From an uncultured Lachnospiraceae bacterium (GTDB lineage Bacteria > Bacillota > Clostridia > Lachnospirales > Lachnospiraceae): 64,000 bases of DNA. Every line of letters starts with the position of its first letter. Positions within the stretch are counted from its first letter, which is position 1. The notes below the pieces were generated by a model, which did no database searches, was not told where the DNA came from, and saw nothing but the letters and a program-made list of their open reading frames with translations. The position numbers and the translations under genes are program-made. The stretch lies in contig CANOFW010000017.1 of assembly GCA_947565425.1 (NCBI GenBank), positions 1 through 64,000 of the forward strand. The letters run 5' to 3'. This document shows, one piece after another, positions 7,393 to 24,960 of this stretch.

Positions 7393-7510
7393 TATGGTAG
7401 CAAGCTTTTTAACAGTATGCCTTTCCTTTTCCTGGTGGATTAAAACTTCCATTGCCAGCACTTTTTTGCTTGGCGAATATCCTTACCCCAGGGAAGAAGA
7501 TTTCGAGTAA
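7385..7510 (+). CDS. agrD: AgrD-like cyclic lactone autoinducer precursor with Ser in the ring position
   Basis: A 41-residue ORF directly after agrB. It has an amphipathic/hydrophobic N-terminal part (FLTVCLSFSWWIK), a short core, and an acidic tail with YPYPREEDFE, which matches the AgrD layout of leader, autoinducer and charged C-terminal recognition tail. In most AgrD peptides the ring is closed by Cys four residues before the processing point. Here the core reads IASTFLL followed by GEYPYP, so Ser25 occupies that position and the ring would be a lactone. The only Cys (residue 12) is in the leader. Staphylococcus intermedius uses a Ser lactone, so this is plausible. A second ATG at 7394 would give 38 residues. 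Confidence 0.8.
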   Translation: MNDMVASFLTVCLSFSWWIKTSIASTFLLGEYPYPREEDFE

Positions 7511-7542
7511 GCCCTGCTATACAAAAACAAAACCTCAGCAGG

Positions 7543-7582
7543 AAAAAGTGCGGACAATCACTCTTGACTGCCCGCACTTTTT
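7543..7582. terminator. Bidirectional terminator between agrD and the agrC-like kinase
   Basis: AAAAAGTGCGG (7543-7553) and CCGCACTTTTT (7572-7582) form an 11-bp perfect stem with A tracts and T tracts on both sides, so it can work in both directions between two convergent transcripts. The stop codon of the kinase gene (7558-7560) lies inside the loop. Confidence 0.85.
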
Positions 7583-8829
7583 ATAATCAATGTAAACTGT
7601 ATCCAATTTTCCTGTCCCTCTTCTAAATTTTCACAGCGTATGCCCAACCCCCACTCATCACACAATATTTTCACATGGTGCAATCCCAGGCCGCGTCCCT
7701 CCCCTTTACTGCTGCCTCCCGGCTGAAACCACTGCTCTATTTCCGCATACGGCACATATGCGAATTGATTACGAATTTTAAAATAATAATTTTCTTCATC
7801 CGCTTCCATGGAAAAGAAAACTTTTTGTTGCTTTATGCTGTCATATGCTTCCACTGCATTGTCAATGAGAACGCCCAGAATTTCAATCAGATAATAATTG
7901 GGCACTTCCAACCGTTCCAGCTTCGTATGTATTGCATATTCCACGCACAGACCGCGTGCTTCCACCTCCTCAAACTTTCCGTACAAAAAACCTGCCAGAA
8001 CATCATTGCCAATAAGCGCCAAACCATTATACCGGTTCTCCCATGCCAGCTTATGACAATATTCTCTCTGCGCTTCCACAAGCTTATCATACGTTTTATG
8101 GGTATAATGGAATGAAAAAATTGCCGCTAAATGATTTTTAAATTCATGTTGCCGCAATCTCACTTTCTGCAAAAGCTCTCTGTACCGCTCCTGCAAACGT
8201 ATATTGTTATCCAACTCTTTTTCTATCTGCACTATCCTTTCCTGAGAACGGTTCCACTTGCCGACTAACACCACAATCATCAGAACTGCCGGAATAGCAA
8301 AAATAAACATTTCAACTTGAATCTGCCCAAACAGTTTACCTTGCAATAATAAAAATATGATAACTATCTCGACAAAACTGCAAACGCTTACAACATACCT
8401 ATTCCTCACAAATATATTTTTTCGCAGTCTATCTAATTTGTCTCCAGGCAAAAGGAAAATACAAAAACATAGCACCTCTAAACTGACTATAAAGTTTCTT
8501 AACTCTATATTATCAGGAACTATCACACTTGTTAGTAACAAACATATAAACTGCAACGCTGTCATAATCACATTTAACAAGAATAACATAGCCCCGGACA
8601 TAACAAGAGACTCCCGAAATTCGCTTTTACAATAGATAAAAATCAATATAAAGTTAAGAACAGTAGAAATCTCGCTTATTCCCAAATGATTTACCGTTAT
8701 CAGTACAACTATCATTAAAATGATTAAGGCGGCTGTCTTGAAATCAAATTTCACTTTTTTCCCATGAATCCGATAAATACAAACAACCGTTGTTATCGTC
8801 TCAATAACCAATGAAATCAGCGTAAACAT
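7558..8829 (-). CDS. AgrC-like GHKL sensor histidine kinase
   Basis: A 423-residue kinase with about six N-terminal membrane segments (residues 1-190), a coiled linker, and a cytoplasmic GHKL domain. The phosphoacceptor is His228 in RQHEFKNHLAAI; the N box is IGVLIDNAVEAYD-like (EILGVLIDNAVEAY) and the G box is GGSSKGEGRGLGLHHV. Such AgrC-type kinases sense the cyclic peptide made by AgrB/AgrD, which are encoded next door on the opposite strand. It starts one base after the stop of the LytTR regulator (TGATATG), so translation is coupled. Which signal it senses is inferred from context. Confidence 0.92.
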   Translation of the reverse strand: MFTLISLVIETITTVVCIYRIHGKKVKFDFKTAALIILMIVVLITVNHLGISEISTVLNFILIFIYCKSEFRESLVMSGAMLFLLNVIMTALQFICLLLTSVIVPDNIELRNFIVSLEVLCFCIFLLPGDKLDRLRKNIFVRNRYVVSVCSFVEIVIIFLLLQGKLFGQIQVEMFIFAIPAVLMIVVLVGKWNRSQERIVQIEKELDNNIRLQERYRELLQKVRLRQHEFKNHLAAIFSFHYTHKTYDKLVEAQREYCHKLAWENRYNGLALIGNDVLAGFLYGKFEEVEARGLCVEYAIHTKLERLEVPNYYLIEILGVLIDNAVEAYDSIKQQKVFFSMEADEENYYFKIRNQFAYVPYAEIEQWFQPGGSSKGEGRGLGLHHVKILCDEWGLGIRCENLEEGQENWIQFTLIIKSAGSQE

Positions 8830-8830
8830 A

Positions 8831-9559
8831 TCAGTTCAAAAGTTCTCTAAAATATTTCTTATACATCATGCCAATTTCCACCTGCTCCGTGCCTCCCTTC
8901 AGCCGAATGAGCTGATTGGGAATATCCACATTCGATATAAATTTTTTATTAATCACTGTGCTGCGGCTGCATTGAACGATATCCGGGTTGTCAGCCTCCG
9001 CCAGAAATTTCTTTAAAGTAACATAGGGAATACTCAAGACATCTCCCTGCTGTGTATGGATATCGAGCATATGGTTCCTGGCATTGACATATACAATGTC
9101 TTCCATATTCACCGACAATATAATTCCATCCTTGCGAAAATATAAGGTTTTTGGTAACTGCCTTTTTTCAGGGAATCTCAGGCACTGTCTTACCAACTCC
9201 TTTAATTTTTCCGGATCAAACGGCTTTTCCACAAAACTATAGCAATGCAGCTTTTCATAAGAACACAGTTTGGCGTCTTCCAATGACGTTACCATAATAA
9301 CCGGGGTAAAGGCATATCTGTCAATTTTACGAATGCTATCTACAAATTTTAACCCAGATGAATCCCCAGGGCTGTTTGGTTTCAGAATAATATCTACTAA
9401 AAATAAGTCAATATCTCGCTCCAATGCATACTGATATGCATCTTTAATATTATCACAGCGAAATAATGTATTTTGTATTTCCAGTTCATTTATCAGTGAT
9501 GCGAGGTGTTCCCTAGCCACATAATTATCTTCCAAAATTAAAATTTTTTTCAAAAACAT
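8831..9559 (-). CDS. LytTR-family response regulator (AgrA-like)
   Basis: A 242-residue regulator with an N-terminal receiver domain (acidic residues E10 and D11, phosphoacceptor Asp56 in LFLVDIILK, Lys in VEKPF) and a C-terminal LytTR DNA-binding domain (about 135-240; DIVYVNARNHMLDIHT and CSRSTVINKKFI). LytTR regulators of this kind bind pairs of short direct repeats at target promoters. It is the middle gene of an operon running HTH regulator, LytTR regulator, kinase. A likely target is the agrBD promoter region, by analogy with agr systems. Confidence 0.93.
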   Translation of the reverse strand: MFLKKILILEDNYVAREHLASLINELEIQNTLFRCDNIKDAYQYALERDIDLFLVDIILKPNSPGDSSGLKFVDSIRKIDRYAFTPVIMVTSLEDAKLCSYEKLHCYSFVEKPFDPEKLKELVRQCLRFPEKRQLPKTLYFRKDGIILSVNMEDIVYVNARNHMLDIHTQQGDVLSIPYVTLKKFLAEADNPDIVQCSRSTVINKKFISNVDIPNQLIRLKGGTEQVEIGMMYKKYFRELLN

Positions 9560-11293: not shown

Positions 11294-11378
11294 TCTTATA
11301 GGAAAGATCTTGTCACGCTAATGTGTGAAAGTGCCTTTCCTATAAGAGAAAAATAATATGCGCACTCGCACAATCGGA
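11294..11378. repeat. Dispersed palindromic repeat, copy D (inverse of the copy at 20893-20970)
   Basis: CTTATAGGAAAG and CTTTCCTATAAG are arms of an inverted repeat, followed by a segment that reads, on the other strand, GTGCGAGTGCGCATATTA. The same order, with the same sequence in the outer part, is found on the plus strand at about 20893-20970, upstream of secDF. The two copies differ mostly in the middle of the palindrome. Confidence 0.7.
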
Positions 11379-11413
11379 AAGATAATCACATCACATACAG
11401 AAAGGACGAAACT

Positions 11414-13003
11414 ATGGCAATCATGCTTCTTTTATGCTGTGCTGTCATCCTCTCTTGTATCATAGCAAACCGCTTTTCCAACAAATTCGGAATGCCCGCA
11501 CTGCTGTGCTTCATGGCACTTGGTATGATATTCGGCTCTGACGGACTGTTTAAAATTTCCTTCAACAATTACAAAATGACCGAGCAGCTCTGCACCATCG
11601 CGTTAATTTTTATCATGTTTTACGGTGGTTTCGGAACTAACTGGCAAACTGCACGCCCGATTGCAGCAAAGGCGGTTTTACTTTCTACTCTAGGTGTTGT
11701 GGCTACCGCGCTCCTTACTTGTCTCTTCTGCTATCAAGTATTGAATTTTTCCTTTTCTGAAAGTTTTCTTATCGGCGCAGTTTTGAGTTCCACGGACGCG
11801 GCTTCCGTATTTTCCATTCTGCGTTCCAAAAACCTCAATCTCAAACATTCGACCGCGCCACTTTTGGAAATTGAAAGCGGCAGTAACGACCCCATGGCAT
11901 ATATGCTTACCATGGTCGCGCTTGCTATGATTTCCGGCAATAGCAATACCTCCGTGCCTCTCATGCTTTTGACGCAGATTGGTATCGGAATCGTCATCGG
12001 CGTTGCCTGTGCCGGTATCGGCATTCTCGCGCTTAAAAAAGATGAGCTAATTACACTCGGCATGGACACAGTCTTTGTGATCGCGTTGGTACTCCTCTCC
12101 TATGCGCTGCCTACGGTGTTAGGCGGCAACGGTTACCTGAGCGTATACCTCACCGGTATTATCTTGGGAAATAGTACCATCAATAACAAAATTACACTGG
12201 TCCACTTTTTTGATGGAATAACCGGACTGGCACAAATTTTAATCTTTTTCCTGCTGGGGCTTCTATCCTTTCCGCATCTATTACCCCGGCTGTTTGTGCC
12301 AGCGCTGCTCATTGCGCTGTTCCTGACTTTTATTGCCAGACCAGCAGCCGTATTCCTGCTCCTCGTACCATTCCATTCGTCTCTCAGACAATGCCTGCTG
12401 GTATCATGGTCTGGACTGCGCGGCGCTGCATCCATTGTGTTCGCTATTATGGTAATTGCCGACGGCACCAGTTCTGAGCACGATTTGTTCCATATTGTAT
12501 TTTTTGTTTCCCTGCTCTCCGTCGCCGTTCAGGGGTCTCTGTTACCTCTCGTTGCCAGGAAACTAGATATGGTAGACGACAGCTCCGACATCCGCAAAAC
12601 TTTTAACGATTATCAGGACGACTCTGATCTGACGCTGATGCGCATGTACATTCCCCATGGGCATAACTGGGAGAACCGTAAAATCGAAGACGTCAACTTC
12701 CCCACCGGCTCGCTCGCCCTAATGATTAAACGCGATGGGGACACCTTAATTCCGCGAGGCAGCACGACAATCCTTGCTGGCGACACACTGATTCTCAGTG
12801 TTCCCTCTTATCGCGGAGAAAACGATGGCAAATTAAAAGAAATTCTGGTGGACTCCGGGCATAATTGGTGCAACGCTTCCATTGCTGAACTGAATCTCCC
12901 GGAAAATATCCTGATTGCTTTAATAAAGCGCGGAGATGAAAACATCATTCCTCAGGGCAGCACCGTCATCCATGCCAATGACCGGGTAGTTATCTATAAA
13001 TAG
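11414..13003 (+). CDS. K+ or Na+/H+ antiporter, NhaP2/CPA1 family with two RCK_C (TrkA_C) domains
   Basis: A 529-residue transporter with about 12 membrane segments (1-390) and a cytoplasmic tail. Typical NhaP/CPA1 features are GFGTNWQTARP, the unwound-helix region SSTDAASVF, and the ESGSNDPMAYML motif holding the carboxylates used in cation/H+ exchange. Residues about 410-529 contain two TrkA_C-type modules (each with PxGS-like and RGxxxxxPxG motifs), which bind nucleotides or cyclic di-AMP in relatives. NhaP2 proteins expel K+ or Na+ in exchange for protons. The start follows AAAGGACG. Its end overlaps the convergent lipoprotein gene by 14 bases. Confidence 0.9.
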   Translation: MAIMLLLCCAVILSCIIANRFSNKFGMPALLCFMALGMIFGSDGLFKISFNNYKMTEQLCTIALIFIMFYGGFGTNWQTARPIAAKAVLLSTLGVVATALLTCLFCYQVLNFSFSESFLIGAVLSSTDAASVFSILRSKNLNLKHSTAPLLEIESGSNDPMAYMLTMVALAMISGNSNTSVPLMLLTQIGIGIVIGVACAGIGILALKKDELITLGMDTVFVIALVLLSYALPTVLGGNGYLSVYLTGIILGNSTINNKITLVHFFDGITGLAQILIFFLLGLLSFPHLLPRLFVPALLIALFLTFIARPAAVFLLLVPFHSSLRQCLLVSWSGLRGAASIVFAIMVIADGTSSEHDLFHIVFFVSLLSVAVQGSLLPLVARKLDMVDDSSDIRKTFNDYQDDSDLTLMRMYIPHGHNWENRKIEDVNFPTGSLALMIKRDGDTLIPRGSTTILAGDTLILSVPSYRGENDGKLKEILVDSGHNWCNASIAELNLPENILIALIKRGDENIIPQGSTVIHANDRVVIYK

Positions 13004-14066
13004 GTGACAAAAACATATCTGAAATCCTGTAGTTATCATCCTTTTTTTCTCCAACCAGCGACTCGCCTAATTTCCGGCAAGAGCCGTCCGGCAAAAGCTC
13101 ATACTTGCAGACCAAAGCCTGCGGGTCCTGTTGCAGCATATAGTAGACTCCATCCTCGATATAGCTTTGCAGCACGCTTTCCGCAAAATGGTATTCAGCC
13201 TCTATCTCCTCTGTCTTTGGATTTAAACAGTAGACTTCCGTCTCGCCAAGGTGCTCCATATCGCAGTCTATGACATACACCTTCTCTTTATCCGAAACAA
13301 CCTGCGCCGCATATTGGCCAGGAAGGGGGATGTGGGATAGCGTATTCTCTGCCGGAGCATAGACAGATAACTTGTCACCGTTTGGTATGTACATCCTCCC
13401 GTCATGCCACAGCGTATAAGAAAGGGCACTGTCCTCCAGTTCTCCCGTCGTATCAAGAATTTTCTCCTGGCTTTGGTCTTTGACATTCACGCGATACAAA
13501 GAACCTTCTATCCCCTCTAAATCTTCATCCAGAAAATACACGTCATATCCATCCACACTGATGCTTACTCCCGAAACACCCTCTATTTTTATGGTGGCGT
13601 CTTCCCCGTCCTCAAAGGAATGGTAATCCACATAAGTGTCATAATTAATGTTACCCAGCATGAAGAGTCCATTTTCATTGATTCGAAAATCCTGTAGGCC
13701 GCCTTCCCCTTTATATGGATAATCCTTCCATTCTCCGGTCTTCATATCCATAGCTGTTACGGCACATTTATTGTATTTATTAATATCCCCGACAGACTTC
13801 TCATAAACCATACCATCTAACACCTGCACAGGTGCGGAGCCGAAGCTGCCCAGCGCATGGTAGGGGCTCTCCAAAACCTCTGTCTCCTTCAGGTTTTCAT
13901 CCATTAAATGGATATATGTCGTGCCGGCGCCATAATTGACGCTATCTATTACGCCTACGCGGTATGGCTGCTGTGGCACTTTTGTCTCCACCTTTTGGGA
14001 ACATCCTGCCACAAGAACATAGAACAAGAACAATACAACCCATATTCTGCATATTTTCTTTCCCAT
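12990..14066 (-). CDS. Lipoprotein with beta-propeller-like repeats, unknown function
   Basis: A 358-residue lipoprotein (signal peptide, lipobox VAGC with Cys22). The mature part is rich in beta strands with repeated patterns such as VSVDGYDVYFLDED, DGRMYIPNGDKLSVY and DKEKVYVIDCDME, each a tyrosine/aspartate-rich strand pair, suggesting a DUF5050-like or six-bladed propeller fold. It is the last gene of the minus-strand cluster that starts with the LytTR/GHKL genes and includes the subtilisin. The role may be binding or sensing at the cell surface. No enzymatic motif is seen. Confidence 0.8.
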   Translation of the reverse strand: MGKKICRIWVVLFLFYVLVAGCSQKVETKVPQQPYRVGVIDSVNYGAGTTYIHLMDENLKETEVLESPYHALGSFGSAPVQVLDGMVYEKSVGDINKYNKCAVTAMDMKTGEWKDYPYKGEGGLQDFRINENGLFMLGNINYDTYVDYHSFEDGEDATIKIEGVSGVSISVDGYDVYFLDEDLEGIEGSLYRVNVKDQSQEKILDTTGELEDSALSYTLWHDGRMYIPNGDKLSVYAPAENTLSHIPLPGQYAAQVVSDKEKVYVIDCDMEHLGETEVYCLNPKTEEIEAEYHFAESVLQSYIEDGVYYMLQQDPQALVCKYELLPDGSCRKLGESLVGEKKDDNYRISDMFLSPIYR

Positions 14067-14129
14067 GATAAGTCACCATCTTCCTTTCCAGAAAAGGCGC
14101 TGCCCTATCTAAGGGACAACGCCGCATCC

Positions 14130-14792
14130 TTACTTTTTATAAATCACCTTTGTTTTTTTGCTCCGAACCAATTCCATTGGATGAATTGGGTTACGCCCTC
14201 CAATGGAAAATGCTTTTGTATTTAAATCAATGCCATACAAATCTTTATATGCTGCATATATCAACTGTGAACAATAAAACTTCTTCCGCGTATTAATGTT
14301 AAAGTAATCATAATTATATTTTTTTCCAATCTGGGAAGCGCACCACTGCACTGCTTTCTTGTCTTGCGCTCTACTCGTTCCTTTTACTTTAAGCCCATAC
14401 ACTTTTTTCCTTGTTCTATTCCAGTTATTACGCCCCTTTAGCACGCCTTGCGAAACCGATTCTATGACATAATTCTTACTGTATACAATCGCTGCATGGC
14501 CTAAAGGAAGAAGCTTCCATTTATCCGGCGTCACAAGAATAACACCCGCTCTTGTCGGATACTTATTCTTTGCCTCCACTGTCACCGTCCCATCATCTGA
14601 CGGCTTATCAAAATCTATGCTCTCTTTATCAGCTTCCTTGGTTAATTCCTCTATCTTTTCCTCTGGAAAAATCTCGCTTGGATCAGGCGTTGCCGCCTTT
14701 ACTCCCAACGGAACTTCTACCAGCATCACTCCTGCCATGCAAAAAATCACCAATTTACGCAATAACTTACTTTTTAACGTCCTCTTATGCAT
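14130..14792 (-). CDS. Secreted YiiX-like permuted papain-fold hydrolase
   Basis: A 220-residue protein with an N-terminal signal peptide (about 1-33, ending VKAA). A flexible acidic stretch (35-70) precedes a domain of the YaeF/YiiX permuted NlpC/P60-papain type: RAGVILVTPDKWKLLPLGHAAIVY contains the catalytic His, and KKFYCSQLIYAAYKDLYGIDLN contains the catalytic Cys. Such proteins are thiol amidases or peptidases; the substrate is not known. It follows the FN3/Ig-like gene by 49 bases and is followed by the lipoprotein gene after 63 bases, so it belongs to the subtilisin cluster. Confidence 0.85.
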   Translation of the reverse strand: MHKRTLKSKLLRKLVIFCMAGVMLVEVPLGVKAATPDPSEIFPEEKIEELTKEADKESIDFDKPSDDGTVTVEAKNKYPTRAGVILVTPDKWKLLPLGHAAIVYSKNYVIESVSQGVLKGRNNWNRTRKKVYGLKVKGTSRAQDKKAVQWCASQIGKKYNYDYFNINTRKKFYCSQLIYAAYKDLYGIDLNTKAFSIGGRNPIHPMELVRSKKTKVIYKK

Positions 14793-14841
14793 CTTTTATC
14801 CTCCATTCCACGTGTAACCCTTAATTATTATTTTCTCGTTT

Positions 14842-15549
14842 CTATTGTACCACATTTATCCTCATACGAAATGTCTTTGACAACCCGCTTTTTAATGTAA
14901 CCTTTATGGTTGCCGTAGTTCTGCCTGCTTTCTTCCCAACAATAACTCCGGTAGGACTGGCGTTGGCAACTTCTTTGTTACGAATTTTACAAGAAATGCC
15001 CTTTATATATTTAGAGCCTCTTCCCCTCCTAGATTTTACGGCAATTTTCTTCTCTTGCCCCACTTTAACGATTAGCGATTTTGCCACAGATAAATCTTTG
15101 GGAAGCGGCTGTTTTTTCATATCAACTGTCGCCGTCACATATCTGCTGTACTTCTTTTCCCCGTCTAATATCTTGTAAGAACGCATGGCAAGCTTATATT
15201 TCTTATTAGGGGACAACCCCTTCACCGTATACTTTCTGGAAGATCTTGATTTTACTTCTTTCACCAGATGAAATTTTCCGTCATCTTTTTTTATATAAAC
15301 CTCATACCCGCTTACGGCTATTAAGCCCCTCCATCTTAATGTAACTTTTCGTTCCGCTGTCTTATATGCCTGAAAATCCTGCGGCGGCGCCGGCGGATCA
15401 TCAATAAACACCGTGGACATAACATACTTAGCAGACACAGGCATTTCTTCGTCACTGCCGACGGCAGCAAATGAAACAAAAGGTACTGCAAGCGACAATA
15501 TCAAAAGAATACTACATGCTGTCATGGCCTTTAATTTTAATTTTTTCAT
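14842..15549 (-). CDS. Secreted protein with FN3 and bacterial Ig-like (BIG2) domains
   Basis: A 235-residue protein with a signal peptide (1-28, ending SFAA). Residues about 52-140 form a fibronectin type III domain (PPQDFQAYKTAERKVTLRWR, SGYEVYIKKDDG, LSPNKKYKLAMRSY). Residues about 150-235 match a BIG2-like domain, with LIVKVGQEKKIAVK and the closing GRTTATIKVTLKSGL. No catalytic motif is seen; it probably binds or scaffolds at the cell surface. It starts 40 bases downstream of the subtilisin gene, whose own C terminus is also FN3-like, so the two may work together. Confidence 0.87.
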   Translation of the reverse strand: MKKLKLKAMTACSILLILSLAVPFVSFAAVGSDEEMPVSAKYVMSTVFIDDPPAPPQDFQAYKTAERKVTLRWRGLIAVSGYEVYIKKDDGKFHLVKEVKSRSSRKYTVKGLSPNKKYKLAMRSYKILDGEKKYSRYVTATVDMKKQPLPKDLSVAKSLIVKVGQEKKIAVKSRRGRGSKYIKGISCKIRNKEVANASPTGVIVGKKAGRTTATIKVTLKSGLSKTFRMRINVVQ

Positions 15550-15589
15550 AAAATAAAACTTCCTTTCGCATTTAAAAATCCTGTTACTA

Positions 15590-17581
15590 TTATTCTATGG
15601 CTTTCACCGATTTAATTTCCGAATAAGGCGTATATTTGTACCCGGAACCATATCTCATGGCAGCGCGCACTTTGTAATAATAAACCTTTCCAGCCCTCAA
15701 CCCGGAATCTGTATACGTACCGCTTAAAACTGCGTCACCCGAAATTGCCTTTATTCTTAAATACTTCCCACTCTTACTGTCCGCCCGGTAAACAATCACT
15801 TTCTCTGGCCCATATACCCTCAACGTATTCCATTTCAGCTTTACTCTGGAATTTGCCAATGCCGTCGCACCATTCAGCGTAACCGTGCTGTTTTTAAATT
15901 CCTGGTACTTCGCTTTCTGTACTGCCAACCCCGCATTTAAAAGACCACAATTAAAATAACTGCTATTGATATCCGTTGCAGCGCTGTAAAGGATGTTCTT
16001 TATCTGAGCCGGCGTTAAATCAGGATTGACCGACAACATCAGCCCGATAGCCGAAGATACCAGCGGAGCCGCCAATGACGTCCCTTCCAGAAAACCATCG
16101 TACGCTGTATTGCTCCAGGATGACGTAGATTTAAAATTTGTTGCCGGAGCTACGATATCCACCCAACTCCCAAAATTAGAATCACGGTATTTCTTATTCG
16201 AGGATGATTGGTCTGTCCCGCCGACTGCAATGACATAATCCAATACGGCTGGATATTTCCCTATATTCTTTCCATTGTTTCCGGCAGCAGCCACGACGAT
16301 TACTCCGGCTGTTTTAGCATAATCTACCGCCATCTCATAAGCTTTATGCGCCTGATATCCTCCCAGGCTGACATTTACCACTTCTGCTCCGGAATCAACT
16401 GCTTTTTTAATGCCTAAATATATATCGCTTTCCTTGAATTGTTCCTTGCCGTTTTTTTCTCCGAATGATACTTTGATGGGAATTGCCTTGCAGGAAGTGT
16501 TCTCCCAGCCTCTCGCCGCCCCTGCGATTCCTATGGAATTATTGGCTCTGGCAGCGATAATTCCGGTACACCAGGTCCCATGTTCCGAATCATACGGCTC
16601 CCTCATATCTTCCAGCTTCACATATTTTCCGCCTGCATCCTTTTGGGTAACGTCCACTGCATATCGGTTGACAATCCCATCTGCCAAATCTTTGTGCTTG
16701 ACCCGGCATCCCGTATCCACAACTGCTATCCAGATATCATCGCACCCCGCTGTCGATACGCTGTCCCATGCCTCCTTGAAATTACATCTGTCCAGATACC
16801 ATTGGGAATTTACATATTCGTCATTGAGTTTCGATGCCATGCCGCTGACTTCACATTTTCCATTCGGCTCCGCCTCCACGACGCAGTCATACGCCTCAAA
16901 TTCCTCCTCTGCACCCGCTACGGTCTGGTCCAGGTTCAGTTTTACTCTGACAACAATATCCCCCCTGTAGCTTTCCAAAGCTTTCAGCCTCTGCTGCTTT
17001 CTTTCACTCAAAGATGTATCCATTTCAAAATCATTATCTAATATGATATCGTATGATTCCGAAAGGTTGCTTACCACTGTGTCAATATCCTCTTTAGAAG
17101 TATCTTTATCAAAGATAACGAGTTCCTCACCGGCAACATAATCAAGGCTTTCTTCATTGTCCCGTTCTTCCCTTGCCTCTGTGTAATCCGCAACATCCTC
17201 TGTGATGTCTTCTTCAAGAGCTTCGCTGAAATCTGCTACCGCCTCTTCATCTACCGTCTCCGCGCCATAGTAAGTATCCAAGACTTCTTTGACGCCTACC
17301 GCAACCGCTTCGCCGCCTTCCAGTTCATTCAATGCCTCTCCTGCCGCCTCACCGCTTGCTTCTGCCTCTGAGACAGCCTTAGCAATCACTTCCTGTTCTT
17401 CCGACGGCAAATCCTCCAGTTCTGTAACCTCTGTCGCTTCCTGCACCGTCAACGGCGCTTCCTGCATACTGTCTTTGTCCTGCTGCAACGATTCTGCCAT
17501 CGCCGGCTGCATAGGCGAACTGCCAAACTCTGCGCCCATCAGTGAAACCATCAGCAGCAATACTACAAGTTTCCTTCTCAT
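15590..17581 (-). CDS. Secreted S8 subtilisin-like serine protease with C-terminal FN3 domain
   Basis: A 663-residue protease. It has a signal peptide (about 1-30), a very acidic, alanine-rich propeptide (35-155), a possible I9-like prodomain (155-240), the S8 catalytic domain with Asp289 (IAVVDTGC), His334 (SEHGTWC) and Ser502 (EGTSLAAP), oxyanion Asn in AAAGNNGKN, and an FN3-like domain (about 573-660). The catalytic Ser motif is GTSLAAP rather than the usual GTSMAAP. The start at 17581 is preferred because GAAAGGGG then sits at the correct distance; an ATG two codons earlier is too close. It is the first large gene after the Trp-rich peptide, 36 bases downstream, and is probably controlled by the LytTR-type promoter. 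Confidence 0.92.
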   Translation of the reverse strand: MRRKLVVLLLMVSLMGAEFGSSPMQPAMAESLQQDKDSMQEAPLTVQEATEVTELEDLPSEEQEVIAKAVSEAEASGEAAGEALNELEGGEAVAVGVKEVLDTYYGAETVDEEAVADFSEALEEDITEDVADYTEAREERDNEESLDYVAGEELVIFDKDTSKEDIDTVVSNLSESYDIILDNDFEMDTSLSERKQQRLKALESYRGDIVVRVKLNLDQTVAGAEEEFEAYDCVVEAEPNGKCEVSGMASKLNDEYVNSQWYLDRCNFKEAWDSVSTAGCDDIWIAVVDTGCRVKHKDLADGIVNRYAVDVTQKDAGGKYVKLEDMREPYDSEHGTWCTGIIAARANNSIGIAGAARGWENTSCKAIPIKVSFGEKNGKEQFKESDIYLGIKKAVDSGAEVVNVSLGGYQAHKAYEMAVDYAKTAGVIVVAAAGNNGKNIGKYPAVLDYVIAVGGTDQSSSNKKYRDSNFGSWVDIVAPATNFKSTSSWSNTAYDGFLEGTSLAAPLVSSAIGLMLSVNPDLTPAQIKNILYSAATDINSSYFNCGLLNAGLAVQKAKYQEFKNSTVTLNGATALANSRVKLKWNTLRVYGPEKVIVYRADSKSGKYLRIKAISGDAVLSGTYTDSGLRAGKVYYYKVRAAMRYGSGYKYTPYSEIKSVKAIE

Positions 17582-17617
17582 AGTCATCCCCTTTCGTAAA
17601 TAAAAACCTCCGCCTCC

Positions 17618-17674
17618 TTACTTCCAAAACTTACGAAACCAGTTCCAAAACCAAAAATCTTTTGACAACAACAT
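17618..17674 (-). CDS. 18-residue Trp-rich cationic peptide ahead of the subtilisin gene
   Basis: The ORF encodes MLLSKDFWFWNWFRKFWK. Four Trp and four Phe alternate with three Lys, one Arg and one Asp. It is preceded by a very strong Shine-Dalgarno (AGGAGGAGGTGA, six bases before the ATG) and closes with TAA. It is placed between a LytTR/GHKL two-component system and a secreted subtilisin, downstream of a promoter with a LytTR-like direct repeat. It has no Cys, no recognisable leader and no membrane span. It could be a pheromone, a membrane-active peptide, a ligand of the protease or kinase, or a leader peptide for the protease mRNA. I know no family for it. The translation signals, not similarity, are the evidence. 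Confidence 0.6.
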   Translation of the reverse strand: MLLSKDFWFWNWFRKFWK

Positions 17675-17689
17675 TTCCCTCACCTCCTC

Positions 17690-17770
17690 CTTTTCTCTAT
17701 CATAATACCTGCTGCCCACAACTTGCAAGAGAAGAGGAATGAACGGTCGTTTTTTGGAACAAACGGTCAT
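17690..17770 (-). promoter_or_regulatory. Promoter with LytTR-type direct repeat upstream of the peptide-subtilisin operon
   Basis: On the plus strand GAACGGTCGT (17741-17750) and AAACGGTCAT (17761-17770) are direct repeats exactly 20 bases apart; read on the minus strand they are ATGACCGTTT and ACGACCGTTC. Pairs of ACCGTT-like boxes two helical turns apart are typical of LytTR/AgrA-type regulator sites. Downstream on the minus strand are TTGCAA and, 18 bases later, TATGAT, a reasonable SigA promoter, with the boxes ending about 14 bases before the -35. The first box lies at the very end of the kinase gene, so regulator and target are adjacent. Confidence 0.7.
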
Positions 17771-19077
17771 TTTTCAGACAAATGAAAGATAACCTGCGCT
17801 GTAAACTTATCTTCTGTGCTTTCAAACATGACTTCACCATGATTCTTATGTACGGCGTCTTTGATATTCAGGATTCCATATCCATGATTTTTATCATCCT
17901 TTTTGGATGTAATACTTCCCAACTTGCCAACTTCAATCCTTTGACTGGCGGGATTCGATATCTCTATCAGCAAATTATCCCCAAGCCGGCGAATTTCCAG
18001 ATGGATATACCGTTTCTCTTCCTCTATCTGCATACATGCCTCTATGCTGTTGGACAGGAGATTGGAAAATATCGTGCACAAATCAAAATCTCCGACAGGC
18101 AGCTCCGGCGGCAGTATTCCCGCAATCTCCCACCGGATTCCCTGCCCTTCCGACTGCATTTGAGAGAGCACGGCGTCCACAATCTCATGCCCGACCGACA
18201 CCGTCTTCTTAATCGCCCGCTCCATATGCGCCTGCATCTTTGCCAGATATTCCTGCGCCTTTTGGTACTCGCCATTCTCCAACTGATACCTTAGAATGCC
18301 CATATGATTCTGTATGTCATGCCGTATCTTTTGGGTCTCCTTGGCATTATCCCGCACCGTCTTCACATAGTTACCGGCAATCTGAAGGTATTGTTCTTTC
18401 AACAGGCTCTCTTCCTTATACCTTTTACGGAAAATATCCAGAACTGCGCTGCCAACACCCAGAGTATAAAACATAATATTGACTAAAATCACACACACTG
18501 AGATAAAATTTGCAAACTGGACATTTTCATATTCTCTGCTGATGCTTTCTACAAAATGATGAATCATAGAAGCTGCAAATGCACAAACACTTCCAACAAT
18601 AAAATACCCTGATGGAATATCCCTTACGATTTCCTTATACTGCGCTATCTTTCTCTTCAAAATAATTACCAGCACAAGTTCAGCTACAATCGTAAGTATC
18701 CCCCGCAGAAACCGATAGCACACATCTTCACCTGATATTTCTACACCTTTCCCTAAAAACAAAGAATAAATTAAATCAATACATGTATAGGGCAGCCCCA
18801 GACACATTGTACTACATATATAAACTGCCAGTCTTCGGAACCACTTTCCTTCTGTCACAAATGTCCAAAAAATAACCGGAACTATCCCCACTCCCATCGT
18901 AAGAATAAATAAATCATCATATTTATACCAATCTCCTCCTGCACACAACACAATTAGACAGATTAAGCCCACAAAAAGCCGCCATTTTTTTCTGGTAATG
19001 GGGACGCAGAACACCCCGCATATCATGATGCCGACCTCCATCTCACCCATCACATTTAATACAACACCCTCTATCAT
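17767..19077 (-). CDS. GHKL sensor histidine kinase (AgrC/ComD-like)
   Basis: A 436-residue kinase with six or seven membrane segments (1-215), a helical linker, the phosphoacceptor His253 in IRHDIQNHM, an N box (CTIFSNLLSNSIEACMQ) and a G box (KKDDKNHGYGILNIK). Kinases of this class sense peptides at the membrane. It starts 7 bases after the LytTR regulator stop, so the two form a pair. The gene ends within the region holding the LytTR-like boxes of the next transcription unit. The ligand is unknown; the adjacent Trp-rich peptide or a product of the subtilisin are candidates. Confidence 0.92.
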   Translation of the reverse strand: MIEGVVLNVMGEMEVGIMICGVFCVPITRKKWRLFVGLICLIVLCAGGDWYKYDDLFILTMGVGIVPVIFWTFVTEGKWFRRLAVYICSTMCLGLPYTCIDLIYSLFLGKGVEISGEDVCYRFLRGILTIVAELVLVIILKRKIAQYKEIVRDIPSGYFIVGSVCAFAASMIHHFVESISREYENVQFANFISVCVILVNIMFYTLGVGSAVLDIFRKRYKEESLLKEQYLQIAGNYVKTVRDNAKETQKIRHDIQNHMGILRYQLENGEYQKAQEYLAKMQAHMERAIKKTVSVGHEIVDAVLSQMQSEGQGIRWEIAGILPPELPVGDFDLCTIFSNLLSNSIEACMQIEEEKRYIHLEIRRLGDNLLIEISNPASQRIEVGKLGSITSKKDDKNHGYGILNIKDAVHKNHGEVMFESTEDKFTAQVIFHLSEK

Positions 19078-19084
19078 ACCTCCC

Positions 19085-19783
19085 CTACCTCGCCTTGCGA
19101 ATAATATAAGCCAAATATGCTTCTTTTAACTCTTTCGCCTTCCTTCTGCTTACCGGAATGCTCTCCCCATTTTTCAGCCGAATGCTCTGGCTGGCATCCG
19201 AAACATTACCCAAATTAACAAGATAGCTCTTATGGCAGCGGAAGAATGATTTCTGCCCTAACATTTCTTCCAACTGCTGTAAGCTCATGTCACAAAAAGT
19301 TTCTCCTTCTCTGCCAACCACACGGCTGTATTTCTTTTCCGACGCAAAATAAAAAATATCCTTTTGCCTAAATGCCATATCCCCCTGGAGTCCTTTTAAT
19401 ATAAGGACCCTGTCTTCCTCAATATCCTCTATTACACGTGCCAGATATTTTTCCAGTTTCTGTGCATGCAACGGCTTTTCCAGGAACCCATAGACATTCC
19501 TTCCGAACGCCTCCGGCATCCCCTCCACATGACCTGTTACAAAAATGATTCTGATTTCTTCCTCTGCCTGAAGATATTCTTTCAACTCAATACCTGAGAT
19601 CCCCTCCATCTCTATATCCAAAAACAAAAGATTAATTTCTTCCCCTCTGTCCAGAAAGTCGACTCCTGACTCATATTCCCACAAATCATATTGCAGCCCT
19701 TTTTCTTTGAAATATCGTTCTAATAGACTTTTTATCTGTTCTCTACAGTCCTTCTCATCATCGCAAATACCGACTCTTATCAT
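19085..19783 (-). CDS. LytTR-family response regulator
   Basis: A 232-residue regulator with a receiver domain (D8, D9, phosphoacceptor Asp56 in LLFLDIEME, Lys in LEKPL) and a LytTR DNA-binding domain (about 130-228; IFYFASEKKYSRVV and FFRCHKSYLVNL). It is paired with the GHKL kinase downstream and preceded by a lipoprotein gene 50 bases upstream. The ACCGTT direct repeats at 17738-17770 are its most likely target, by proximity and by the known form of LytTR sites. Confidence 0.93.
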   Translation of the reverse strand: MIRVGICDDEKDCREQIKSLLERYFKEKGLQYDLWEYESGVDFLDRGEEINLLFLDIEMEGISGIELKEYLQAEEEIRIIFVTGHVEGMPEAFGRNVYGFLEKPLHAQKLEKYLARVIEDIEEDRVLILKGLQGDMAFRQKDIFYFASEKKYSRVVGREGETFCDMSLQQLEEMLGQKSFFRCHKSYLVNLGNVSDASQSIRLKNGESIPVSRRKAKELKEAYLAYIIRKAR

Positions 19784-19833
19784 TTATCCCACTCCTCGTA
19801 ACGAGTTCTTTTCTGTTAAAAATTGTTATCATT

Positions 19834-20703
19834 TTACTGCTCTAAAAACTGCAAAGCTTCTTCTTTGCTGAGGGCATCCTCTGCGCCAATCGTCTTGCTG
19901 TTTTCGGTAATTCTAAGGTCTGCAAGCCTTTCTTGGAACGTTGCCTCATCCGTTTCTTCTCCCCTATCGTAATAATTGGTAACGCCTTCCCCTGTATAAA
20001 CCCCTTCTTCATCATATATAGCATTATATGTAACATTCAATACCGGTTGTTCCTCATTTGTAAGCGTTTTATCTTTGGACACTTGATAATAAGACAGACC
20101 ATATCCACCCTCATCACCTCCGCCATTCCAGCTTGCAAACAACGCAATACTGCCGCTTCGCTCAAAATAAGTCATTTCTGTCGTACTCATAGCGTCGACC
20201 ATACAAAATAACGCATCCTCTTTCATAGTATAGATAGAATAAGTACCATAACCATTGTCGATAACAGCCAGTTCTGGAACGTCATCATCATCTAAATATG
20301 GAAACGCATACACAACACCATCTTCTGACATATCCGCAATCTTTTTCTTGTAAACGTCACGATATGTTGCAGATATATTATCATTTTGGGTATTTTCCGC
20401 CTGATTTGCCTCCACGTTAGGATTCTTCTCTTCTTCGTTTTCCGTCGCCGGCTCTGGTGTAGCGGCTTTCGCTTCTGTAGTTTTTTCCGTACCATCTTCC
20501 ACAGCTTTGGCATTCTCTTTCATTTCTGAATCTTCATCGCTATCCTGCTGTTCAATATCACTCCCTGCATCCTCTCCCTTTTGCTCATTTTCTGCACCCG
20601 CGCTTGATTGCGTTGTCTCCTCACTTGTGCTATTTGCTTCTCCACAGGCAGCAAACGCAGCCAACATAAAACAGAACATACCTACAATAAAAAACTTTTT
20701 CAT
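19834..20703 (-). CDS. Lipoprotein with acidic linker, unknown function
   Basis: A 289-residue lipoprotein (signal peptide MKKFFIVGMFCFMLAAFAAC, lipobox AAC with Cys20). Residues 22-115 are a low-complexity Glu/Ser/Thr/Ala linker; residues 118-270 form a globular domain (YKKKIADMSEDGVVYAFPYLDDDDVPELAVIDNGYG, then WNGGGDEGGYGLSYYQV) that resembles small domains found in clostridial surface lipoproteins. The start was set at 20703 because the signal peptide begins there and AGAGGT precedes it. It lies 50 bases upstream of the LytTR regulator on the same strand, so it may be an extracytoplasmic partner of that system. Confidence 0.82.
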   Translation of the reverse strand: MKKFFIVGMFCFMLAAFAACGEANSTSEETTQSSAGAENEQKGEDAGSDIEQQDSDEDSEMKENAKAVEDGTEKTTEAKAATPEPATENEEEKNPNVEANQAENTQNDNISATYRDVYKKKIADMSEDGVVYAFPYLDDDDVPELAVIDNGYGTYSIYTMKEDALFCMVDAMSTTEMTYFERSGSIALFASWNGGGDEGGYGLSYYQVSKDKTLTNEEQPVLNVTYNAIYDEEGVYTGEGVTNYYDRGEETDEATFQERLADLRITENSKTIGAEDALSKEEALQFLEQ

Positions 20704-21046
20704 CTTTTTAACCTCTTTTTTCTCTTTCATATAGAACAAAGTGGGCAAGCCCACTTCAGCTCCCCTAACCCCTCACTCATGAGGGTGCTGGACATCCGGT
20801 GGATGTCCGTTTAGCACAGACCGAAGCGAAGCGTAGACCTTGCACACTTTGACGCGCCGCGTGCAGTCGCTTTAGCGACATATTTCCTTTTGTGCGAGTG
20901 CGCATATTATTTTTGTCTTATAGGCAGATACTTTTGTACTTTAGCGCAGAAAGGCATCCGCCTATAAGATAAACTATCCCCGACTACCTGATATTCCTGG
21001 CTGTCGGGGATTTATATCCTAAATTCTAGCTCTCTATTTGATTACT
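20704..21046. repeat. Repeat-rich spacer, including palindromic repeat copy B
   Basis: A 343-base gap without a gene. It contains a GTGGGC/GCCCAC hairpin (about 20740-20753), a nested hairpin with GGACATCC and GGATGTCC flanked by GTGCT and AGCAC, then the dispersed core GTCGCTTTAGCGAC, CATATTTCC, TGTGCGAGTGCGCAT (20866-20905) and the palindrome CTTATAGG...CCTATAAG, as in copy D at 11294. ATCCCCGAC (20976-20984) pairs with GTCGGGGAT (21003-21011), a hairpin following the secDF stop that may end its transcript. Confidence 0.65.
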
Positions 21047-23344: not shown

Positions 23345-24703
23345 TCACGCCTCCATAGCCAGAGCCGCCTTTATCATAATGGCACACTCAATCCGCTTCT
23401 TTTGCAGCTCGCAGCCGATATCGTAAGCATCCGTAATGCTGCCATGAAAATTGTATGAATTTGCCGCACAACCGCCGCTGCAATAAAATTTTGCAAAACA
23501 ATTCCTGCATTTTTCCTTGGCATATACGTTGCAGGACTTAAATTCATCGCGTATCTGCGTATTCTTGATACCCTCCGTGACATTTCCCATCAGGAAATCT
23601 TCGTTCCCCACAAACTGATGGCAGGGATAGAAATCCCCCCAGGGCGTCACTGCAAGATACTCGGTGCCAGAGCCACAGCCCGACAAACGCTTTGCCACAC
23701 AGGGACCTCCCTCTAAATCTATCATAAAATGAAAGAAATGAAAAGCTTTTCCTTCTCGGTGACGCCTTATCATCTCCCGGGCAAGCTTATCGTATTCCTC
23801 AAACAGCCTGGGAAGATCTTCTTCACGTAGTGCATACTCTTCTTCCGGCTGAGCCACCACAGGTTCCACCGAAATCTGTTGAAATCCCAAATCCGCCAAA
23901 TGCAGCACGTCTTCCGAAAAATCCAGATTATTATGGGTAAATGTTCCCCGCACATAATATCTTTCCTGGTTCCTGCTCTCGGCAAGTTTCTGGAACTTAG
24001 GAACAATCAGTTCATAACTGCCTGCTCCTCCCCGGAATGGACGCATCCGATCATTCACTTCTTTCCTTCCGTCAATGCTCAGGACAACATTTGCCATCTC
24101 GCGATTTGCAAACTCCATAACGTCATCATTTAATAACACACCATTGGTAGTGAGTGTAAATCGGAACTTTTTATCGTGAAGCTTCTCTTGCTCCCTGCCA
24201 TATGCTACCAACTGTTTTACGACATCAAAGTTCATAAGCGGCTCGCCGCCAAAGAAATCTACTTCCAAATTCCGGCGATTGCCTGAATTGGCAATCAGGA
24301 AATCCAATGCCGCTTTCCCCACCTCGAAAGACATCAACGCCCTTCTTCCATGATATTCCCCTTCTTCAGCAAAGCAATATCGACAGGCAAGATTGCAATC
24401 ATGAGCAATATGTAAACACAATGCCTTTACTACCGTAGGCCGGTCCTTAAACTGCTCCATGTATGCTTCGTATTCATCCTTGGAAAACAACTCACCCTTT
24501 GTCACAAGTTCGTGAACTTCCTCGTAGCTCTCTACCACCTCTGCCTCTTGATATGTTGCTTTCAAGGTGTTTATGATCTCCTCTTTGGTATGAGCCTCAA
24601 ATAGTGAAATTACGTCATAGGTGACGTCATCCACCACATGAACCGCCCCGCTGTTCACATCCAAAACAATGTTATAGCCGTTGTTCTTATACTGGTGAAC
24701 CAC
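23345..24703 (-). CDS. scfB: SCIFF peptide maturase, radical SAM/SPASM thioether-forming enzyme
   Basis: A 452-residue radical SAM enzyme. The N-terminal part (1-90) resembles a RiPP recognition domain; the radical SAM motif is CNLACRYC (Cys103, Cys107, Cys110), and the C-terminal SPASM domain has CGSGTEYLAVTPWGDFYPCHQF and CRNCFAKFYCSGGCAANSY for auxiliary Fe-S clusters. It installs thioether bridges in the SCIFF peptide, a ranthipeptide. Translation starts at a GTG behind GAGAGGA. The precursor gene lies 116 bases upstream on the same strand, with a hairpin between them. Confidence 0.95.
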   Translation of the reverse strand: MVHQYKNNGYNIVLDVNSGAVHVVDDVTYDVISLFEAHTKEEIINTLKATYQEAEVVESYEEVHELVTKGELFSKDEYEAYMEQFKDRPTVVKALCLHIAHDCNLACRYCFAEEGEYHGRRALMSFEVGKAALDFLIANSGNRRNLEVDFFGGEPLMNFDVVKQLVAYGREQEKLHDKKFRFTLTTNGVLLNDDVMEFANREMANVVLSIDGRKEVNDRMRPFRGGAGSYELIVPKFQKLAESRNQERYYVRGTFTHNNLDFSEDVLHLADLGFQQISVEPVVAQPEEEYALREEDLPRLFEEYDKLAREMIRRHREGKAFHFFHFMIDLEGGPCVAKRLSGCGSGTEYLAVTPWGDFYPCHQFVGNEDFLMGNVTEGIKNTQIRDEFKSCNVYAKEKCRNCFAKFYCSGGCAANSYNFHGSITDAYDIGCELQKKRIECAIMIKAALAMEA

Positions 24704-24765
24704 GCTGATTCCTCTCTTTCTCTACTCGCAATCAGAAATGCCAAAGGCATTCTTGCAACGCACAA

Positions 24766-24795
24766 ATGACCGCTCGTCTAGCGAACGGTCCTTGT
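24766..24795 (-). terminator. Hairpin between SCIFF peptide and maturase genes
   Basis: GACCG-C-TCG and CGA-A-CGGTC form a stem of eight pairs with one mismatch (about 24769-24791). There is no T run, so it is more likely an mRNA-processing or attenuation hairpin than a full terminator. Its position would let the small precursor be made in excess of its maturase. The role is inferred. Confidence 0.45.
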
Positions 24796-24819
24796 AATAA
24801 TATAAATTATTGTCAGAAA

Positions 24820-24960
24820 TTACCTGTTCTCACAACTCTGGTTGCCGACTGTACAGCTTGTCTTGCAAGCAGACTGGCAAGAAGTCTGGCATTCGCCACA
24901 GCCGCCTTTTTTCACTGTGTTCTGTAACTTTCTAGTATTTAATGTCTTTACATGCTTCAT
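24820..24960 (-). CDS. scfA: SCIFF (six-cysteines-in-forty-five) ranthipeptide precursor
   Basis: A 46-residue peptide with exactly six Cys (positions 21, 24, 28, 32, 36 and 43) in its C-terminal half and the leader MKHVKTLNTRKLQNTVKKGG, which is the SCIFF hallmark. The ATG at 24960 follows AGGAAAGGAAG; a longer reading from 25041 is not supported. In the known family ScfB links Cys to nearby residues through thioethers, and the product has been linked with clostridial cell-cell signalling. The maturase follows directly, then secDF. Confidence 0.96.
   Translation of the reverse strand: MKHVKTLNTRKLQNTVKKGGCGECQTSCQSACKTSCTVGNQSCENR

What the first reader, a model, noticed from the sequence alone, without database searches (positions are those of the whole stretch)
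12990..20703. Candidate signalling module: LytTR/GHKL pair, Trp-rich 18-mer, subtilisin and secreted partners
On the minus strand, in order, lie a lipoprotein, a LytTR regulator, a GHKL kinase, a promoter with LytTR-like boxes, an 18-residue Trp-rich peptide, a secreted subtilisin, an FN3/Ig-like protein, a YiiX-like thiol hydrolase and another lipoprotein. Regulator, target promoter, tiny peptide and secreted proteases in one cluster fit a peptide-sensing or peptide-processing system that I know no name for. Seen: gene order, motifs, boxes. Inferred: that the parts act together.
Basis: partly seen in the sequence, partly recalled or inferred. Interest (0 to 1): 0.85.

Follow-up and report, generated by a model that had tools for sequence, protein, structure and literature searches.

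The report
Kinase-paired tryptophan-rich tiny peptide module
A gut bacterium carries a sensor kinase and regulator that appear to switch on an 18-residue tryptophan-rich peptide, and many related bacteria keep a similar tiny peptide right beside the same kind of kinase, which looks like an undescribed peptide-signalling family.

Summary
In detail: LytTR regulator, GHKL kinase, promoter with two ACCGTT-type boxes 20 bp apart, an 18-mer (MLLSKDFWFWNWFRKFWK), secreted subtilisin, FN3/Ig-like protein and C92 peptidase, then a terminator. Comparison changes the meaning. The conserved unit is regulator-kinase-box-peptide; the protease is exchangeable cargo. Of 11 same-genus genomes with the kinase ortholog, 10 keep the peptide, but only 2 have a subtilisin as next gene. 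A kinase profile run over 397 family genomes gave 42 testable loci; 22 (20 of 40 without the two loci used to build the profile) have a Trp/aromatic ORF of 14-26 residues just downstream, against 3.3% of shuffled segments. Three genomes lack both kinase and peptide but keep regulator and box. AgrB was not found in 7 of the 11 genomes. In seven relatives the same promoter would drive a 400-613-nt RNA carrying the peptide ORF, with ends that pair, an RNAIII/VR-RNA-like layout. Best reading: a leaderless peptide-GHKL-LytTR feedback loop without AgrB or double-glycine leader. That the peptide is the kinase's ligand is inferred; its export is unknown.

The parts
19085..19783 (-). LytTR-type response regulator (receiver + LytTR DNA-binding domain)
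   Evidence: Pfam PF00072 4.3e-14 and PF04397 1.3e-23
17767..19077 (-). GHKL sensor kinase, about 7 hydrophobic segments then catalytic domain
   Evidence: PF14501 4e-22; seven hydropathy peaks at residues 17-200; with profile A3 the only PDB match at E<=0.01 is the S. aureus AgrC kinase module, 3.9e-4
17756..17767 (-). LytTR-like box 1, ACCGTTTGTTCC
   Evidence: the box pair is the only match in the genome at up to 3 mismatches, and perfect
17736..17747 (-). LytTR-like box 2, ACCGTTCATTCC, 20 bp from box 1
   Evidence: a 20-bp direct repeat is the commonest spacing across the family
17699..17728 (-). promoter-like -35 TTGCAA, 18-bp spacer, -10 TATGAT
   Evidence: consensus match only
17618..17674 (-). 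18-residue Trp-rich peptide ORF MLLSKDFWFWNWFRKFWK
   Evidence: ortholog MMLSNGYIFWHWFRKFWK in G004 and family members in other genera
15590..17587 (-). secreted subtilisin-like protease; VDTG, HGTW and GTSLAAP motifs present; cargo
   Evidence: PF00082 1.2e-41; thermitase 1.5e-30 with alignment
14842..15549 (-). secreted FN3 / Ig-like protein; cargo
   Evidence: PF00041 5.8e-9; homolog directly behind the same kind of box pair in G011
14130..14792 (-). secreted C92 (YiiX-like) permuted papain-fold peptidase/amidase; cargo
   Evidence: PF05708 3.6e-9; no homolog in the other kinase loci held
14096..14123 (-). intrinsic terminator, probable end of the peptide operon
   Evidence: 10-bp stem, 7 GC pairs, T run
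12990..14066 (-). lipoprotein beyond the terminator; membership doubtful
   Evidence: no Pfam family over cut-off; no homolog in the other kinase loci held
19834..20703 (-). lipoprotein upstream of the regulator; membership doubtful
   Evidence: no homolog in the other kinase loci held

Best explanation
This is a peptide-kinase feedback switch. The GHKL kinase phosphorylates the LytTR regulator, which binds the two boxes 20 bp apart behind the kinase gene and turns on one promoter. That promoter makes the 18-residue, leaderless, amphipathic Trp peptide and, in this lineage, a secreted subtilisin, an FN3/Ig-like protein and a C92 peptidase. The peptide acts back on the multi-pass membrane domain of the neighbouring kinase, most likely as an exported autoinducer, so that secretion of the hydrolases becomes all-or-none. 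In relatives the same switch drives other outputs: a structured RNA, other secreted proteins, exporters. Shown here: the anatomy, the recurrence of kinase-box-peptide, coding constraint on the peptide, joint absence of kinase and peptide, and persistence of the pair in genomes where no AgrB was found. Inferred: binding of the boxes by this regulator, translation and export of the peptide, its action on the kinase, quorum-type behaviour.
For: Adjacency: 10 of 11 kinase-ortholog genomes carry an intact peptide. Twenty-two of 42 profile-found loci qualify (20 of 40 without the window and L175, both used in the profile), against 137 of 4200 shuffled segments; among 948 ORF ends in all held loci only 13 hits were not beside a kinase. 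With a stricter rule 698 ends called non-kinase gave 12 hits: 10 were kinases the regexp had missed, 1 lay just before a kinase (L157), 1 was chance. Selection: over the four pairs aligned without gaps 14 of 35.4 synonymous and 24 of 177.6 replacement sites differ (0.40 vs 0.14); last 10 codons, five pairs, 0.43 vs 0.09. Regulation: best 12-mer repeat between kinase and peptide at lag 20 (25 of 38) or 21 (5.25), against 2.5 at lags 20-22 in shuffles; one box pair per genome at 0-2 mismatches in 15 genomes, before the peptide, before its lost or cut site (G007, G009, G018, G016) or, in G011, before the FN3 gene. Joint absence: G009, G018, G007 keep regulator and box but lack kinase and peptide; the tree needs two changes. 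Peptide and kinase distances correlate, r 0.54-0.56. Cargo is swapped. AgrB not found in 7 of 11 ortholog genomes.
Against: Twenty of 42 kinase loci have no such peptide by the rule. G016 keeps a full-length kinase but its peptide ORF stops after 9 codons. No exporter lies in the cluster, and no C39 peptidase was found in the genome. Peptide divergence does not track the sensor domain beyond the catalytic domain (partial r 0.08, p 0.10). Some kinases have boxes but only cargo (L158, L178). The A3 profile was built mainly from peptide-bearing loci and as a rule only four candidates per genome were scored, so 22/42 is not the rate for GHKL kinases at large. For the window's own pair G000/G004 pS (0.15) does not exceed pN (0.18). 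Only one joint loss is forced by well-supported branches. No expression data.
Confidence: 0.5

Rival explanations
1. The peptide is an output, not a signal: a PSM / delta-haemolysin-like membrane-active amphipathic peptide made together with secreted hydrolases, with the kinase sensing something else.
For: Peptides are amphipathic (moment z mean +1.48, se 0.19) and the window's is cationic, net +3. LspU, a PSM-like peptide upstream of a secreted S. aureus lipase, is a precedent (PMC12607899, abstract and outline seen).
Against: Net charge in the family runs from +3 to -6, odd for a lytic peptide. Adjacency follows the kinase, not the cargo. Kinase and peptide are absent together while regulator and box stay.
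Confidence: 0.27
2. The peptide never leaves the cell: it is a membrane-bound feedback modulator of the kinase (activator or brake) made by its own target promoter.
For: No leader; no exporter in the window's cluster and no C39 peptidase found in its genome; amphipathic Trp-rich helices suit the membrane surface; one strong box pair in the genome.
Against: An ABC transporter gene directly follows the peptide in G042 and L155; in L194 the next start reads like the same C39-ABC family by eye.
Confidence: 0.15
3. The short ORF is a regulatory leader: Trp-codon attenuation, or translational coupling to the subtilisin.
For: Four Trp codons in 18; the subtilisin starts about 30 nt after the stop.
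Against: No room for an attenuator between stop and start; the last 10 residues are under amino-acid constraint in relatives, not just Trp codons; in seven relatives the next gene called lies about 300 nt or more away.
Confidence: 0.05
4. The ORF is a by-product and only the RNA matters, as for VR-RNA of C. perfringens.
For: In seven relatives the ORF sits in a predicted 400-613-nt RNA whose ends pair; in VR-RNA the protein reading frame was not the active part (PMC4963840, passages seen).
Against: The window, G004 and the sampled other genera have the peptide without that leader; coding constraint.
Confidence: 0.03

Closest known systems
Agr quorum sensing (AgrBDCA) and VirS/VirR
   Same: GHKL multi-pass kinase (the one PDB match is AgrC), LytTR regulator, direct-repeat boxes before the target; the VirR motif CCAnTT-n15-CCAGTT has a similar period, 21 (PMC4963840 passages)
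   Different: AgrB not found in 7 of 11 ortholog genomes; no sign of a Cys lactone precursor (3 of 40 peptides have a Cys); the peptide lies behind the kinase on its own promoter
S. aureus RNAIII / C. perfringens VR-RNA / C. difficile SpoZ (regulatory RNAs switched on by LytTR systems)
   Same: In seven relatives a LytTR-box promoter would drive a 400-613-nt RNA whose ends pair and which, like RNAIII (delta-haemolysin, recalled), encodes a small amphipathic peptide; VR-RNA is 386 nt with 5' and 3' ends predicted to pair (passages); SpoZ is a direct RgaR target (PMC10602386 passages)
   Different: No Rfam match over these RNAs (six of the seven loci at gathering; G021 at E<=1); no target known; the window itself lacks this RNA leader
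ComC/BlpC-type double-glycine pheromones with HPK10 kinases (class recalled)
   Same: Short peptide, kinase, LytTR regulator and exporter/GG-leader-like cargo in L155
   Different: No leader or GG site in the 18-mer; no C39 peptidase found in the window's genome
Phenol-soluble modulins / LspU
   Same: Leaderless amphipathic peptide next to a secreted enzyme (abstract and outline)
   Different: 15-25 residues with a Trp core and often an F/L-G tail (26 of 40), paired with a kinase

Membership tests
Agr-type quorum sensing | AgrB processing protease in the system | tested here: not met
   No PF04647 hit in 7 of 11 kinase-ortholog genomes (3 of these 7 are 99% complete, 4 are 82-88%); none beside the kinase; the window's one AgrB-like gene lies about 10 kb away beside its own GHKL/LytTR pair
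Agr-type quorum sensing | AgrD-like precursor with (thio)lactone Cys/Ser and acidic tail | tested here: not met
   3 of 40 peptides contain Cys; NCBIfam and Pfam scans of 10 of the 40 found no family (best Pfam E 0.083, unrelated); a Ser lactone was not tested
Agr-type quorum sensing | Polytopic GHKL kinase plus LytTR regulator with direct-repeat boxes | tested here: met
   binding not tested
Double-glycine peptide pheromone systems | GG-leader peptide and C39 ABC exporter | tested here: not met
   No GG leader in the 18-mer; no PF03412 at E<=0.001 in the own genome, 92.9% complete
RNAIII-like peptide-encoding regulatory RNA (relatives only) | LytTR-controlled stable RNA with paired ends and an internal small amphipathic ORF | tested here: inconclusive
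   Sequence features in 7 of the 11 genomes with the leader; leader-helix covariation weak; no transcript data; not applicable to the window
RNAIII-like peptide-encoding regulatory RNA (relatives only) | Acts on target mRNAs | not testable with these tools
   needs RNA-seq and mutants
Phenol-soluble modulins | Amphipathic leaderless surfactant peptide | tested here: inconclusive
   Amphipathic; surfactant activity not testable here
Peptide pheromone (functional class) | Secreted peptide that activates its cognate kinase | not testable with these tools
   needs reporter and synthetic peptide

The most novel reading that the evidence does not exclude
Lachnospiraceae use a large, unrecognised class of leaderless 15-25-residue Trp peptides as kinase-specific autoinducers, with no AgrB, lactone ring or double-glycine leader. 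In one lineage the signal ORF is embedded in an RNAIII-like regulatory RNA, and in the window's lineage that RNA output was replaced by a secreted-protease operon behind the same promoter.
Probability: 0.35. Interest if true: 0.9.

Novelty: new variant of a known kind. Interest (0 to 1): 0.75.

Why it matters
Lachnospiraceae are major gut commensals (recalled). A peptide-kinase pair that can be read off the genome, present beside about half of the sampled loci of one kinase subfamily, would give ready candidate signals to synthesise and test, and could explain what controls some secreted proteases, peptide exporters and candidate regulatory RNAs in these bacteria. ORFs this short are usually left out by routine annotation (recalled), so such systems would be missed.

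Tried and rejected
Trp attenuation: rejected, no space for an attenuator and constraint beyond Trp codons. AgrD-like processing: rejected, AgrB not found in 7 of 11 ortholog genomes. Protease as core partner: rejected, next gene in 2 of 11. The RNA leader outside the genus: 52 of 397 family genomes had a match at E<=0.01, but apart from the training genome G021 (81 bits) none exceeded 29.5 bits, taken as chance (stricter filters); in the genus only the 11 training leaders exceed 31 bits. The Trp peptide outside Lachnospiraceae: none seen, reading the output by eye, beside the kinases of 13 out-of-family class genomes. Sensor-domain coevolution: not found. Covariation of the leader helix: weak, 40 of 500 shuffles paired as well. 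Structure excess of the RNA sits mostly in terminator and end helix: whole-RNA z -1.98 to -5.18, but +0.22 to -4.22 after cutting the last 50 nt, which also cuts into the end helix in some (60 shuffles each). The first genome-contig scan with the single kinase found nothing. The regexp missed most kinases; one search used coordinates instead. In some searches my script ran past the natural kinase stop in G004; one search shows that kinase intact. In one search the pair G005b/G006 was compared without the one-residue gap it needs, so I leave it out of the full-length figure. The kinase structure prediction (ticket) was unfinished at its last collection and is not used; no fold search was run.
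Full report
Check of the observation. The window lies in a 3.36-Mb draft genome (contig C17, 92.9% complete). All named genes are present on the minus strand with the stated domains. The kinase stop codon (17769-17767) runs into two direct repeats, ACCGTTTGTTCC and ACCGTTCATTCC, spaced 20 bp, followed by TTGCAA-18-TATGAT, a strong ribosome site and the 18-codon ORF MLLSKDFWFWNWFRKFWK. The subtilisin starts about 30 nt after its stop. A terminator follows the C92 gene at 14123-14096, so the likely operon is peptide-subtilisin-FN3/Ig-C92, and the last lipoprotein is outside it.

What is conserved. Kinase orthologs (46-61% identity) occur in 10 of 28 other genomes of the genus. Reading the DNA behind each kinase shows a box pair and a short Trp ORF in 10 of the 11 genomes (window included), for example MMLSNGYIFWHWFRKFWK (G004), MLRSNNEDLWEWLKRLFGW (G043), MFYESGETLWELLKRLFGW (G019), MLLGTGDMFWDWFKRLFGVKP (G001). 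The exception is G016, where the ORF stops after 9 codons. The box pattern has one match at 0-2 mismatches in 15 of 29 genomes; three more genomes have one match at 3 mismatches, with one and the same sequence, which is chance-level since the reversed control pattern gave 34 hits in the 29 genomes. A weaker second target would be missed.

The peptide family is wider than the genus. A named-genome scan gave 30 loci, 10 of them the genus's own orthologs and 20 more distant, most titled as uncultured Lachnospiraceae or Eubacterium. Four of the distant loci carry a Trp peptide behind the kinase, one a Roseburia sp. (MLLSASSEIWEWIWGLLRN, L155), and a fifth (L157) has one before the kinase. A profile of 14 kinases over 397 family genomes, with four candidates scored per genome as a rule, gave 44 hits at E<=1e-60 in 32 genomes; 43 have sequence held, of which 42 have enough downstream DNA. 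Under a fixed rule (14-26 residues, at least one Trp and three aromatics, ribosome site, within 350 nt) 22 of 42 qualify; without the window and L175, which are in the profile, 20 of 40. Dinucleotide shuffles qualify in 137 of 4200; among 948 ORF ends in all held loci (kinase ends included) 13 hits were not beside a kinase. The profile was built mainly from peptide-bearing loci, so this rate applies to this kinase subfamily only. Over the class (391 genomes) no Trp peptide was seen beside the kinases of 13 out-of-family genomes, and one more was seen in the family (read by eye). The 40 collected peptides are 15-25 residues, average 2.3 Trp, 3 contain Cys, net charge runs +3 to -6, and the hydrophobic moment exceeds shuffles by 1.48 sd on average. 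Their core reads roughly W-x-x-[hydrophobic]2-x-x-[LIF]-F-G (alignment of 33). Scans of 10 of the 40 against NCBIfam and Pfam found no family (one unrelated Pfam match at E 0.083); PHROGs and PADLOC were not scanned, and peptides under 20 residues, the window's among them, cannot be.

Coding and regulation. In the four pairs that align without gaps (G003/G043, G002/G012, G019/G021, G000/G004) 14 of 35.4 synonymous sites and 24 of 177.6 replacement sites differ; over the last 10 codons of five pairs pS is 0.43 and pN 0.09 (figures, whose own pooled value of 0.50 vs 0.21 includes the misaligned pair G005b/G006). For G000/G004 alone the two are about equal (0.15 vs 0.18), so the constraint rests on the other pairs. 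Between kinase and peptide the best 12-mer direct repeat (38 of 40 loci reach 9 of 12) has lag 20 in 25 and lag 21 in 5.25 (ties shared); in mononucleotide shuffles 20.5 loci reach 9 of 12 and 2.5 have lags 20-22. This is close to the period of the VirR motif (PMC4963840, passages).

Joint absence and co-inheritance. G009, G018 and G007 keep the regulator gene and the box but have no kinase ortholog there, and the peptide ORF is gone or reduced to ATGTTTTAA; their kinase hits elsewhere are at most 35% identical or absent at E<=1e-25. On the regulator tree this takes two changes, G009 and the G018/G007 ancestor, of which well-supported branches force one (root by midpoint, two forks open). G009 is 63% and G007 74% complete, but the regulator-box junction itself is read through in all three. 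Across 33 loci peptide and kinase distances correlate (r 0.54 sensor, 0.56 catalytic, p 0.0005), but the sensor domain adds nothing beyond the catalytic domain (partial r 0.08, p 0.10). So the two travel together; specificity coevolution is not shown.

Cargo is exchanged. Behind box and peptide lie: a subtilisin (window; G016, where only 1.8 kb is held), genes that by eye encode membrane or secreted proteins (G001, G004, G008, G014, G023, L156, L183, L196, L203), an ABC transporter (G042), a C39-type ABC transporter with GG-leader-like peptides (L155), or no called gene for about 300-800 nt (G002, G003, G012, G015, G019, G021, G043). In G011 the box stands directly before a homolog of the window's FN3/Ig protein. 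In G021 homologs of the subtilisin (65% identity) and the FN3 protein lie side by side about 6-9 kb behind the kinase, with no second box at up to 3 mismatches in that genome; G019 holds an FN3 homolog only, and no other locus in that comparison holds the C92 gene or either lipoprotein. Subtilisin is thus one output among several.

RNA form. In seven relatives (G002, G003, G012, G015, G019, G021, G043) the transcript from the assumed start to the terminator would be 400-613 nt. A leader element CTTTCCGA is matched by TCGGAAAG (TTGGAAAG in G019) just before the terminator, with mean pairing probability 0.55-1.00 in the seven; the leader element is absent from G001, G009, G018 and G007, and so is the 3' one apart from one TCGGAAAG-type match in G018. 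Between ORF and terminator an A-rich motif C-N-AA-R-GA recurs; over the whole RNA it occurs 1-8 times (0.26-0.86 in shuffles; not above chance in G021). Rfam gave no match over these RNAs at gathering thresholds in six of the seven loci (the G002 locus was not scanned) nor at E<=1 for G021. A second, different LytTR-boxed RNA of about 150 nt with a long terminator follows the peptide in G005, G006 and G041; Rfam gave only matches far below their cut-offs for G041. LytTR systems driving regulatory RNAs are known: VR-RNA (386 nt, ends predicted to pair; PMC4963840 passages), RNAIII (PMC4691137 passages), SpoZ (PMC10602386 passages). On the regulator tree the RNA-bearing genomes lie outside the clade that holds the window, which suggests (root uncertain) that the protease operon replaced the RNA.

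Agr. The window holds a separate Agr-like set: an AgrB-like protein 6844-7392 (PF04647 3.3e-16), an AgrD-like ORF 7385-7510 (by eye; no NCBIfam match), a GHKL kinase 7558-8829 and a LytTR regulator 8831-9559. AgrB was not found in 7 of the 11 kinase-ortholog genomes, three of them 99% complete, so the Trp peptide does not seem to depend on it. No C39 peptidase was found in the window's genome, so the exporter, if there is one, is unknown.

Conclusion. Best explanation: a leaderless Trp peptide that acts on its neighbouring GHKL kinase in a LytTR feedback loop, with exchangeable output. Main rivals: a PSM-like effector and an intracellular membrane modulator. Literature: searches listed no description of such a family; I saw listings only, apart from passages of PMC4963840, PMC10602386, PMC4691137 and PMC9426450 and the abstract and outline of PMC12607899. 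Subscription papers and preprints are mostly not in that library.

Noticed in passing
window 6844-9559: A separate Agr-like set: AgrB-like protein (+), AgrD-like ORF ending STFLLGEYPYPREEDFE (+), GHKL kinase (-) and LytTR regulator (-); a Ser in place of Cys would give a lactone (label recalled).
   Followed up: partly
window 23345-25041: Six-Cys short peptide of SCIFF type with a radical-SAM maturase-like gene, next to a SecDF-like gene (labels recalled).
   Followed up: no
window 20883-20905 and 11358-11380; also own-genome contig C1 (L214, by eye): Dispersed intergenic repeat containing ATGCGCACTCGCACAAAAGGAAA (two copies in the window at up to 3 mismatches, none expected).
   Followed up: no
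L081, L082, L083 (G005, G041, G006), behind the peptide: A second LytTR box pair (CAACGTTNNNGGGGTTA, period about 20) and promoter before a conserved RNA of about 150 nt with a long terminator hairpin and no shared ORF.
   Followed up: partly
L155, L161, L162, L164: Same kinase type followed by a C39-type ABC transporter; GG-leader-like peptides follow it in L155 (Roseburia) and L161 (Butyrivibrio); L162 and L164 were read only as far as the transporter start.
   Followed up: partly
L157 about 5820: Trp peptide MYYSADPIWIRIWEIIAGKR lies upstream rather than downstream of its kinase, with the regulator after the kinase: same family, other gene order.
   Followed up: no
L052 / L075 (G012) and L041 (G016): G012 kinase carries an in-frame stop while its peptide is intact; G016 keeps the kinase but its peptide ORF is cut to 9 codons.
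   Followed up: partly
L182, L187: Genes behind the Trp peptide look like leader-binding parts of peptide-modification clusters (impression from sequence only).
   Followed up: no
L153 about 1.9-2.5 kb behind the kinase: A subtilase-like stretch (by eye: IDSGVD ... GHGTGIASV) behind the Trp peptide in another genus, perhaps an independent peptide-protease pairing.
   Followed up: no
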